From NCBI GenBank assembly GCA_025363455.1, contig JANYDW010000052.1, positions 1 to 64,000 of the forward strand: DNA of 64,000 nt, written 5' to 3'. Of this stretch, positions 16,064-18,143 are shown piece after piece. Both the position numbers and the translations under genes were made by a program. Source of the stretch: Oleiharenicola sp. Lineage in GTDB: Bacteria; Verrucomicrobiota; Verrucomicrobiia; Opitutales; Opitutaceae. Numbering within the stretch: the first letter of the stretch is position 1; each line of letters begins with the position of its first letter. Under the pieces are notes generated by a model that had not been told where the DNA came from, did not search any database, and was given only the letters and a program-made list of their open reading frames with translations.

Positions 16064-16354
16064 AAAGTTCGCCTCTTGGAGGGACGCGGCTTCATCATTC
16101 TGGCTCTTGTGCCGTCATATTCCGATTTTTCACCTGTTACTCCGACCGCGCGCCGGGTTAGGCTGGCTCGTGTTTTGACGGCATGCCTGCCACCGCGACG
16201 ATAACCAAAACCGTTCCTCCGGGATGGCCCTCTCCGAAGTGCTGCCTAGCAGGGTGGAGCATTCAGTTGTTTCTGCCTAGGAACGACGCAACTCTGGATT
16301 CTGGCGCTTGTTATGGATGACTGTTTTGAAAGGCACACTCCGGCATTGAAATAC

Positions 16355-16380
16355 GATAACAAGTTACGTAACGTTTTATC
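16355..16380. promoter_or_regulatory. 26-bp imperfect palindrome (core GTTACGTAAC), candidate autoregulatory operator
   Basis: GATAACAAGTTACGTAACGTTTTATC abuts the ATG at 16381; reverse complement GATAAAACGTTACGTAACTTGTTATC. Confidence 0.6.
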
Positions 16381-16929
16381 ATGCCGTATGAATCGCTTAG
16401 CCGAAACCGTATAATTCAAGCCCTCCGCCGCTTAGGCGAGCTGGCGCATAAGCAGAAGGTGACCCTCGAACTTTCCCTCTACGGTGGCGCGGTGTTCACG
16501 TTGGTTTATGGCTCGCGCGATGCGACCCGGGACGTGGACGCCGTGGTACGCCAGAGCGATATTGGCAAAACGTTAGCCGCGAAGGTAGCCGCCGAGCTGG
16601 GCCTGCCTGACGACTGGCTGAACGACGACGTGAAGCAATTTCTAGCCGAGAAAGAGGCCAAGCGCAGCCTCCCAGAAGACGATTTCGGCAAGGGCATCCG
16701 GATTGCCGTCCCTACTGCCGCTTATCTTTTGGCCATGAAGCTTCGCGCCTGTCGTCCGCCCTTGCCCGGCTATGCGGGCGACTACGCCGATATTCGTTTT
16801 CTGGTGCAAAAAATGGGGATTGGCTCGGTCGAGGAGGCCGAGGCCTATCATGATAACTTTTTCCCGCACGATGCGCTCACGGCCGAGGCCCGGGAGGTCG
16901 TCAAAGGCGCAATCAAGCCCCGCACATGA
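16381..16929 (+). CDS. DUF6036-like nucleotidyltransferase-fold protein
   Basis: Minimal NTase motif LYGGAVFTLVYGSRDATRDVDAVV. Confidence 0.75.
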   Translation: MPYESLSRNRIIQALRRLGELAHKQKVTLELSLYGGAVFTLVYGSRDATRDVDAVVRQSDIGKTLAAKVAAELGLPDDWLNDDVKQFLAEKEAKRSLPEDDFGKGIRIAVPTAAYLLAMKLRACRPPLPGYAGDYADIRFLVQKMGIGSVEEAEAYHDNFFPHDALTAEAREVVKGAIKPRT

Positions 16930-17459
16930 TCACACGCCCAAAATCATTGAAGGACGTAGCCGAGCAGTCCGCCTCGCTCAGCGAGTTCGGCCTGAACCTG
17001 CGCGACTGGCTGCACGAGCTGCGCCGCGCATCTTCGCGCACCCAAGCCGCGGCCACCATTGTCGACGAACCGCCCCGGCTACGGGAGAAATTTCCGCAAG
17101 GCTACGTCGCCGATGCCTGGCTGGGGGCCTATGCGGAGCACTTGGCGCGGAAGGTTGATCGCACGGCGCCGGCATGGGCTTTCGCGCCCGAGCGCGTTGC
17201 GACCGACCCCGTTTTTGACGAGGGCTCCGATAGTCCGACCTTGCGCGCGCTGGCGCTGGCCCATGCTCCCGCAGCCTTCAAGCGCCGGAATATCTTCACA
17301 CCTTATGTGGATCTCCCGCTACGGTTGCGCGCCGGAAGGCCCACAAAATCGCTCGAAGAGAAGCGCAAAAATAACGCCGAGCGCCAGCGCCGCTTCCGGA
17401 AAGCGCGACTCGAAGAGCTGGCAACGCTGCGAAGACTGGCACGCAAGCACTCCAAATGA
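16926..17459 (+). CDS. Uncharacterised protein paired with the NTase gene, basic C-terminus
   Basis: Overlaps the upstream stop (ATGA); motif AAFKRRNIFTPYVDLPLRLRAGRPTKS; Lys/Arg-rich tail. Confidence 0.7.
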   Translation: MITRPKSLKDVAEQSASLSEFGLNLRDWLHELRRASSRTQAAATIVDEPPRLREKFPQGYVADAWLGAYAEHLARKVDRTAPAWAFAPERVATDPVFDEGSDSPTLRALALAHAPAAFKRRNIFTPYVDLPLRLRAGRPTKSLEEKRKNNAERQRRFRKARLEELATLRRLARKHSK

Positions 17460-17719
17460 AGCGGATGATGGGAGAGTCATTCCCCGTAACGCCCAATTCT
17501 TCCGGAGTGGAAAATCTGGTGTCAGTTTTGGTGTCCGGTCCGTCTCGAGATTTCGGGCCGCCTTCGTCCCGCGCCTGCGGGACTACGGCGTGGCATTTAT
17601 CGGCTTCCGATAAGTGGCCTGCCAGCCGTAGCCACGTGAGTTTCGCATCGGGTGTGAAACGCCGTCCGTCGCCAAGCCTATGGACGGCAGCCTTCGCTCT
17701 CGCTTCGCTCGGCGAAGGC

Positions 17720-17794
17720 TGGAGGTGCGGGGCGGAATCGAACCGCCGAATAGAGCTTTTGCAGAGCTCGGCCTTACCACTTGGCTACCGCACC
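17720..17794 (-). tRNA. tRNA-Cys (GCA)
   Basis: Reverse complement GGTGCGGTAGCCAAGTGGTAAGGCCGAGCTCTGCAAAAGCTCTATTCGGCGGTTCGATTCCGCCCCGCACCTCCA; cloverleaf, anticodon GCA, encoded CCA. Confidence 0.95.
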
Positions 17795-17884: not shown

Positions 17885-18067
17885 TTGGCCACAAAAAGCA
17901 CAAAACACGCAAAAAAGAATGCCCCGCTGCCTCCATCTTCACTCCATTCCGCCGTGTTTCCGCCGCTCGATGGCGCGTCCTCGGCGCATGGCGGAATGGC
18001 GGTAAGTAGAACCCGCTTTCGGTTCATTCCGTCTCTGGTTTTGCGTTTTTTGTGATTTTTGTGGCCA
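17885..18067. repeat. Nested composite inverted repeat
   Basis: Outer ttggccacaaaaagcacaaaacacgcaaaaaa / ttttgcgttttttgtgatttttgtggccaa; inner ccattccgcc / ggcggaatgg. Confidence 0.8.
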
Positions 18068-18143
18068 ACCTCCGGTGGTTCGATTCCCGGCGGGTGGCTA
18101 CTTCGCGCTAGACTCCCCCGCTTCCTTTCCGGTTAATCGCCCC

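What the first reader, a model, noticed from the sequence alone, without database searches (positions are those of the whole stretch)
16355..17459. Two-gene nucleotidyltransferase cassette behind a 26-bp palindrome: candidate undescribed NTase toxin-antitoxin or defence pair
Seen: GATAACAAGTTACGTAACGTTTTATC (core GTTACGTAAC) is a 26-bp imperfect palindrome that abuts the ATG at 16381 with no evident Shine-Dalgarno. The two ORFs overlap by ATGA. Gene 1 carries the minimal NTase signature GG..DVDAVV. Gene 2 has the motif AAFKRRNIF...LRLRAGRP and a Lys/Arg-rich tail. Knowledge: minimal NTases (MNT of MNT/HEPN, AbiEii, MenT) are toxin or antitoxin components, often with coupled genes and palindromic operators. 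Inference: gene 2 is the partner, plausibly the nucleic-acid-binding or operator-binding component. I recall similar unnamed gene pairs but cannot cite function.
Basis: partly seen in the sequence, partly recalled or inferred. Interest (0 to 1): 0.8.

Follow-up and report, generated by a model that had tools for sequence, protein, structure and literature searches.

The report
Toxin-antitoxin pair with bZIP-like repressor
A two-gene bacterial cassette, most likely a toxin enzyme and its antidote, appears to be switched off at a palindrome by an antidote whose DNA-reading tail resembles the one fungi and animals use (bZIP) and is predicted to read the same sequence, TTACGTAA, which would be a rare bacterial use of that DNA-reading device.

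Summary
Gene 1 (16381-16929) is a pol-beta-fold nucleotidyltransferase with AbiEii/MenT-type catalytic motifs. Gene 2 (16926-17459) belongs to no Pfam, NCBIfam or PADLOC family. The pair recurs across Verrucomicrobiota. The palindrome is conserved before gene 1 in 67 of 70 relatives whose gene 2 has the basic tail, in 0 of 18 without it, and in 1 of 4204 control segments. The tail, predicted as one straight helix, carries KxxxNxxRQxxFR; the fungal Pap1 bZIP signature is RxxxNxxAQxxFR and binds TTACGTAA, the core of this operator. Tail and operator covary in the bZIP register: residues 158, 154, 150 with half-site bases 1, 2, 3, each top of 291 columns by normalised mutual information. Gene 1 is almost never found without gene 2; the one full-length solo copy has lost its active site. 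Solo gene 2 is common. Deep relatives carry an XRE helix-turn-helix instead of the tail. Best reading: an NTase toxin with an antitoxin that is also a bZIP-like autorepressor. Toxicity, neutralisation, dimerisation and DNA binding are untested; homology to eukaryotic bZIPs is unsupported (convergence likelier). RptR and TodS are bacterial precedents.

The parts
16346..16351 (+). -35-like element TTGAAA of the operon promoter
   Evidence: TTG[AC] lies within the window 26 to 14 bases before the operator centre in 52 of 64 loci against 5.8% background; promoter role is inference from position.
16355..16380 (.). Palindromic operator GATAACAAGTTACGTAACGTTTTATC; core GTTACGTAAC at 16363-16372, centre 16367/16368; overlaps the inferred -10 (TAACGT, 16369-16374)
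   Evidence: Above 5 bits in 67/70 tail-bearing loci, 0/18 tail-less loci, 1/4204 null segments; only such site with at most 1 mismatch in the genome.
16381..16929 (+). Gene 1: pol-beta-fold nucleotidyltransferase, probable toxin; conserved G35, G36, R46, T49, D51, D53, K120, D134, D137; probably leaderless
   Evidence: AlphaFold2 pLDDT 93.3; Foldseek lists pol-beta NTases including TglT/MenT3, weakly; catalytic residues near-invariant in 87 copies; no Shine-Dalgarno.
16926..17459 (+). Gene 2: probable antitoxin and autorepressor, 177 aa
   Evidence: No Pfam, NCBIfam or PADLOC family; adjacent to gene 1 in 47 of 51 gene 1 places; AlphaFold2 pLDDT 91.9.
16926..17327 (+). Gene 2 N-terminal all-helical partner domain (about residues 1-134), inferred to neutralise the NTase
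   Evidence: Its second half is shared with deep relatives that carry an XRE HTH instead of the tail (hhalign 97.2%, E 3.1e-11), and the domain is shared with tail-less relatives; no PDB fold match for the whole model.
17334..17342 (+). GRP (residues 137-139), AT-hook-like linker before the basic helix
   Evidence: G137 and R138 invariant, P139 nearly so, in alignment A1; an AT-hook function is inference.
17352..17453 (+). bZIP-like basic helix (residues 143-176): K146xxxN150xxR153Q154xxF157R158, then hydrophobic +7 and +10 (L165, L168)
   Evidence: Single helix in the model; residues 158/154/150 rank first of 291 columns for half-site bases 1/2/3; zipper register.

Best explanation
The cassette is a self-regulated toxin-antitoxin operon. 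Gene 1 is a nucleotidyltransferase toxin of the AbiEii/MenT mechanistic kind; its target, perhaps tRNA 3' ends, is inferred only. Gene 2 is the antitoxin: its N-terminal helical domain neutralises gene 1 (inferred), and its C-terminal helix binds the GTTACGTAAC palindrome as a dimer, each helix entering the major groove like a bZIP basic region, with residue 158 reading the central base pair, 154 the next and 150 the third (covariation shown, binding inferred). The operator overlaps the promoter and the start of a probably leaderless message, so binding shuts off both genes. Loss of gene 2 would release both transcription and toxin.
For: Conserved pair. Operator tied to the tail: 67/70 against 0/18. 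Four tail types with four operator types: N150/Q154/R158 with GTTACGTAAC; A or S150 with (A/G)TAACGTTA(T/C); Q158 with GTTAGCTAAC; D154 with GTCGYGC(T/G)A(T/C). Residues 158, 154 and 150 are the top columns for bases 1, 2 and 3 by MI over joint entropy, also below 80% identity. The published Pap1 signature RxxxNxxAQxxFR contacts TTAC half-sites of TTACGTAA and its first Arg the flanking G (PMC7261193). One straight helix. Hydrophobic residues at +7 (91%) and +10 (69%) after residue 158. Catalytic residues near-invariant in 87 paired gene 1 copies and lost in the one full-length solo copy; many solo gene 2 copies. Same partner domain fused to an XRE HTH, with the palindrome TTGACATATTATAATATGTCAA over a promoter-like stretch.
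Against: No experiment. No statistical similarity to bZIP models or to the sequences of bZIP structures. Zipper far shorter than in bZIPs. Independent switches are few (residue 150 changes 4 times; concordant pairs 2, discordant 0, ties 2; not significant alone), so ancestry could inflate the covariation. Raw MI does not rank these residues first. Exceptions: L003, L005, L013, L014, L087, L089, L168. No complex or DNA-bound model could be run.
Confidence: 0.7

Rival explanations
1. Gene 2 is a DNA-binding autorepressor, but the pair is not toxin-antitoxin: gene 1 is a regulated housekeeping or defence NTase (for example modifying RNA or a small molecule) with its own repressor.
For: The operator and covariation evidence needs no toxin. 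No toxicity data. Solo gene 2 persists in a syntenic clade as an apparent stand-alone regulator.
Against: Gene 1 with an intact active site is not seen without gene 2, contig ends aside; patchy distribution, 64 of 373 genomes in the order; position beside a tRNA gene; XRE-NTase arrangement in deep relatives.
Confidence: 0.2
2. Reversed roles: gene 1 is a minimal-NTase antitoxin (as in MNT-HEPN) and gene 2 is the toxin.
For: MNT antitoxins are NTases paired with helical HEPN toxins (own knowledge); gene 2's N-domain is all-helical.
Against: Gene 2 often stands alone and gene 1 does not, the opposite of the expectation. No Rx4-6H motif: R26 and H30 are three residues apart and neither is conserved across the family. 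No fold match in the PDB. Gene 1's motif is GGx14DxD with motif III/IV-like K120 and D134xxD137.
Confidence: 0.04
3. The tail binds the operator, but not in bZIP fashion: an AT-hook plus a basic helix, or another arrangement, and the similarity to Pap1 is coincidence.
For: GRP linker; no profile match to bZIP; A89 of Pap1 is R153 here; short zipper.
Against: Residues at i, i+4, i+8 couple to bases 3, 2, 1 in order; same core sequence as Pap1 and NFIL3 (PMC7261193, PMC10941009); +7/+10 hydrophobic register.
Confidence: 0.2
4. The operator is recognised by a host regulator or by gene 1, and covariation with gene 2 is shared ancestry.
For: Few independent switches; many columns in both genes correlate with operator class.
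Against: Operator absent in all 18 loci whose gene 2 lacks the tail; the three predicted residues outrank all 291 columns for their own base; single site in the genome.
Confidence: 0.06

Closest known systems
AbiE type IV toxin-antitoxin (AbiEi/AbiEii; PMC3985639, PMC7319586)
   Same: Bicistronic; DUF1814-like NTase with motifs I-IV; antitoxin that also represses its promoter through inverted repeats.
   Different: Gene order reversed; gene 2 has no winged HTH and no AbiEi domain; gene 1 is below the AbiEii Pfam cut-off (16.9 against 22.5 bits).
MenAT family (MenT1/MenT3/TglT; PMC10435456)
   Same: Catalytic T/S, D, K, D positions match T49, D51, K120, D134; Foldseek lists TglT and MenT3, weakly.
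   Different: No sequence match to PDB chains; gene 2 was not compared with MenA1 or MenA3 but has a DNA-reading tail of its own; tRNA activity unknown.
RptR, bacterial repressor described by its authors as bZIP-like (PMC12255303)
   Same: Short palindrome read by two splayed helices; TAGCTA is the core of the operator found with Q158 tails (GTTAGCTAAC).
   Different: RptR's sequence was not compared.
Fungal AP-1/Pap1 and vertebrate NFIL3 and C/EBP bZIP factors (PMC7261193, PMC10941009)
   Same: RxxxNxxAQxxFR (Pap1) against KxxxNxxRQxxFR; preferred site TTACGTAA.
   Different: A to R at one contact position; no long leucine zipper; no detectable homology; bacterial operon setting.

Membership tests
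AbiE type IV toxin-antitoxin | Toxin motifs I-IV: G[G/S]...DhD, K in motif III, +DxxD in motif IV | tested here: met
   G35/G36, D51/D53, K120 (KLRAxR), D134xxD137 near-invariant in 87 copies; motif definitions from PMC3985639. The leading basic residue of motif IV is G here.
AbiE type IV toxin-antitoxin | AbiEii profile above curated cut-off | tested here: not met
   16.9 bits against 22.5; PADLOC AbiEii E 0.002, 15.8 bits.
AbiE type IV toxin-antitoxin | AbiEi antitoxin with winged HTH and AbiEi domain | tested here: not met
   No family for gene 2; model has no winged HTH.
AbiE type IV toxin-antitoxin | Inverted-repeat operator in the operon promoter | tested here: met
   (binding itself not tested).
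MenAT | Catalytic T/S-x-D, K, D set | tested here: met
   T49/D51/K120/D134 conserved; MenT1 T39/D41/K137/D152 from PMC10435456.
MenAT | tRNA acceptor-stem extension | not testable with these tools
   Needs biochemistry.
Toxin-antitoxin (behaviour) | Toxin not found without antitoxin; antitoxin may stand alone | tested here: met
   51 gene 1 places: 47 with gene 2, 2 contig ends, 1 pseudogene, 1 with active site lost; at least 15 solo full-length gene 2.
Toxin-antitoxin (behaviour) | Toxicity and neutralisation | not testable with these tools
   Needs an expression assay.
DUF6036 (PF19502) | Profile above gathering score | tested here: not met
   12.1 bits (window) and up to 22.9 (relatives) against 23.6; several mycobacterial homologues are annotated DUF6036.
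bZIP transcription factors | Basic-region signature NxxAQxxFR (Pap1 subfamily) | tested here: inconclusive
   N, Q, F and R match; A is R.
bZIP transcription factors | Residue-base register (R with base 1, A/Q with base 2, N with base 3) | tested here: met
   By covariation only.
bZIP transcription factors | Leucine zipper of several heptads | tested here: not met
   Hydrophobic only at +7, +10 and partly +13.
bZIP transcription factors | Profile or sequence match to the bZIP family | tested here: not met
   No bZIP hit in Pfam or among PDB sequences.
MNT-HEPN | HEPN partner with Rx4-6H | tested here: not met
   R26-x3-H30, not conserved; no PDB fold match.
RptR | Sequence homology to RptR | not tested
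   RptR's sequence was not compared.

The most novel reading that the evidence does not exclude
A bacterial antitoxin has converged on the eukaryotic bZIP way of reading DNA: one basic helix per monomer, with the Pap1 contact residues in the same register, reads the same TTACGTAA site, and natural switches at three residues (150, 154, 158) give a legible residue-to-base code, on a protein domain whose relatives use an XRE helix-turn-helix instead.
Probability: 0.6. Interest if true: 0.85.

Novelty: new variant of a known kind. Interest (0 to 1): 0.77.

Why it matters
bZIP factors are usually described as eukaryotic; bacterial parallels are few (TodS, RptR). A family in which tail and operator vary together across a phylum gives a natural experiment on how one helix reads DNA, with single-residue swaps that predict operator swaps and can be tested by gel shift. 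It also adds a probable toxin-antitoxin family that has no model in PADLOC and whose antitoxin has exchanged its DNA-binding module (N-terminal XRE, C-terminal XRE, C-terminal basic helix).

Tried and rejected
MNT-HEPN with gene 2 as toxin: rejected (no HEPN motif, wrong direction of gene loss). Homology to eukaryotic bZIPs: not supported, so convergence is preferred. Phage-borne element: no homologue of gene 2 confirmed in viral contigs. Regulon beyond this operon: only one good site in the genome. Other proteins bearing the tail: only gene 2 homologues plus two weak, unexamined hits in 289 genomes. Structural neighbours of gene 2: none in the PDB. The first null models for the operator had a slicing error (falsely high null) and were redone. 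The second class search covered the same genome set as and added nothing. The tree-based pair test has too few events to be significant.

Full report
What is there. A 182-residue ORF (16381-16929) and a 177-residue ORF (16926-17459) overlap by ATGA. The sequence GATAACAAGTTACGTAACGTTTTATC (16355-16380) abuts the first ATG. Gene 1 gives only sub-threshold matches to AbiEii and DUF6036; gene 2 matches nothing in Pfam, NCBIfam or PADLOC.

The pair is real and recurrent. Gene 2 was found in 34 of 388 Verrucomicrobiota genomes and in 64 of 373 genomes of the order, patchily even within the genus. An 80-locus set came from the GTDB species collection. In most loci gene 1 lies directly upstream, most often with the same 4-base overlap. 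No homologue was confirmed in viral contigs.

Gene 1. AlphaFold2 gives a confident model (pLDDT 93.3). Foldseek lists pol-beta nucleotidyltransferases including TglT/MenT3, but weakly (TglT E 0.03, probability 0.96). Over 87 paired copies G35, G36, T49, D51, D53, K120, D134 and D137 are almost invariant. These correspond to AbiEii motifs I-IV (PMC3985639) and to the MenT catalytic positions, three of which (D, K, D) abolish MenT1 toxicity when mutated (PMC10435456).

Direction of dependence. Of 51 places encoding gene 1 in the order, 47 have gene 2 adjacent, two lie at contig ends, one is a pseudogene with five stops, and one is full-length but alone. That solo copy (L209:1437-2009) has lost G35, R46, T49, D51 and D53. 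In contrast 31 of 126 non-redundant gene 2 loci lack an adjacent gene 1; some are contig edges or false hits, but at least 15 are full-length genes with readable upstream sequence. This asymmetry is what a toxin (gene 1) and antitoxin (gene 2) would give. It is inference; no toxicity was measured.

Operator. A symmetric 24-bp motif, ATAAAaCGTTACGTAACGtTTTAT, was learned from the loci. It scores above 5 bits in 67 of 70 loci whose gene 2 bears the basic tail, in 0 of 18 whose gene 2 lacks it, and in 1 of 4204 73-bp control segments; 64 of 67 remain above 5 in leave-one-out scoring. The three failing loci have shortened gene 1 frames. The centre typically lies 12-17 bases before the start. A TTGA/C element lies about 21 bases before the centre in 52 of 64 loci against 5.8% background, and none of 67 gene 1 starts has a Shine-Dalgarno-like motif against 31 of 67 for gene 2. 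I infer a promoter whose -10 is covered by the operator and a message starting at or near the ATG (leaderless). The window's genome has no second good site.

The tail. AlphaFold2 predicts gene 2 as an all-helical domain (about 1-125), a linker with GRP (137-139) and one straight helix, residues 143-176 (pLDDT 91.9). No PDB fold resembles it. The helix reads K146xxxN150xxR153Q154xxF157R158. The fungal Pap1 subfamily of bZIP proteins has RxxxNxxAQxxFR, whose N, A, Q, F, R contact the TTAC half-site of TTACGTAA and whose first R contacts the flanking G (PMC7261193). NFIL3 and C/EBP also prefer TTACGTAA (PMC10941009). The window's operator core is GTTACGTAAC. Hydrophobic residues occur at 158+7 (91%) and 158+10 (69%), which from memory are the first zipper a and d positions of GCN4; beyond that there is no long zipper.

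A residue-to-base code. Grouped by residues 150, 154 and 158, the operators fall into four main types: N/Q/R with GTTACGTAAC and close variants (33 loci); A or S at 150 with (A/G)TAACGTTA(T/C) (14 loci, two exceptions, one of them with a poor site); Q at 158 with GTTAGCTAAC (5 of 7; one GTTATCTAAC, one GTTACGTAAC); D at 154 with GTCGYGC(T/G)A(T/C) (10 of 11). Over 291 variable columns of both proteins, the top column by MI over joint entropy is residue 158 for half-site base 1, 154 for base 2 and 150 for base 3, the order I expect from bZIP-DNA complexes. This holds below 80% identity; Cramer's V ranks them 1, 1 and 7-8; raw MI, which favours high-entropy columns, does not put them first; at under 65% identity only residue 154 stays first. 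I had noticed the pattern by eye before computing it, so the ranking is a check rather than a blind test. On a tree built without the tail, residue 150 changes four times and the concordant pairs are few (2 against 0, with 2 ties): the direction is consistent, the number of events too small for significance. Among near relatives the switch recurs: L098 and L107 (S150) have TAACGTTA operators beside L009 (N150, TTACGTAA).

Module swapping. Deep relatives L253, L254 and L263 have reversed order: a gene 2 homologue comes first, with an N-terminal XRE-like helix-turn-helix, then the NTase; L254 and L263 have the palindrome TTGACATATTATAATATGTCAA (L263 with one or two changed bases) over a promoter-like stretch. 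The shared partner domain aligns with gene 2 residues 64-124 at 97.2% probability, E 3.1e-11. L018 has an XRE domain at the C-terminus, and L022 and L165 look alike by eye. L023-L029 have no DNA-binding module and no operator. The partner domain is thus the constant part and the basic tail one of several interchangeable DNA-binding modules.

Relation to known systems. It works like AbiE and MenAT, but gene 2 is not AbiEi and gene 1 fails the AbiEii cut-off, so I do not file it as a member. It reads DNA like a bZIP as far as sequence can show, but fails the zipper and profile tests, so I call it bZIP-like. RptR (PMC12255303) is the nearest bacterial precedent; its authors compare it to bZIPs, and its site TAGCTA is the core of the Q158-type operator here. 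TodS is the other precedent they cite. The paper searches found no description of this family; the library holds open-licence papers only.

Verdict. Confident that gene 2's tail and the operator belong together (about 0.9), fairly confident that the helix reads the site in bZIP fashion (about 0.65-0.7) and that the pair is toxin-antitoxin (about 0.75).

Noticed in passing
L016, L090, L097, L108, L146, L156, L159 (upstream of gene 2): A clade of gene 2 stands alone; in most of these loci it lies downstream of an engB-like GTPase, and most keep a CGTTACGTA-like half-operator about 50 bases upstream. It looks like an antitoxin-derived regulator kept without its toxin; D27 and H30 of the partner domain are lost in L016.
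   Followed up: partly
L253-L263: Deep relatives with reversed gene order; those read in full have, or retain part of, an N-terminal XRE domain, and L254 and L263 carry a different palindromic operator: apparently an undescribed XRE-NTase toxin-antitoxin family.
   Followed up: partly
window 16197-16230 and 17460-17794; L219, L221, L223: Relatives without the cassette share the sequence just after gene 2 beside tRNA-Cys and have what looks like the start of an integrase-like ORF there: probable insertion hotspot.
   Followed up: partly
window 17885-17914 and 18039-18068: A 30-bp inverted repeat (93%) brackets about 125 bases between tRNA-Cys and a parA gene.
   Followed up: no
L106 and L147, gene 1: Gene 1 copies with one catalytic aspartate changed (TRGVD, TRDVV) although gene 2 and operator are intact: possibly inactivated toxins.
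   Followed up: no
L042: Gene 2 65% identical to the window's in a MAG labelled Acidobacteria, grouping with Opitutaceae in the tree: misbinning or transfer.
   Followed up: no
L082, L132, L145: N150 tails with an asymmetric operator GTTACGTTAC, half TTAC type and half TAAC type.
   Followed up: no
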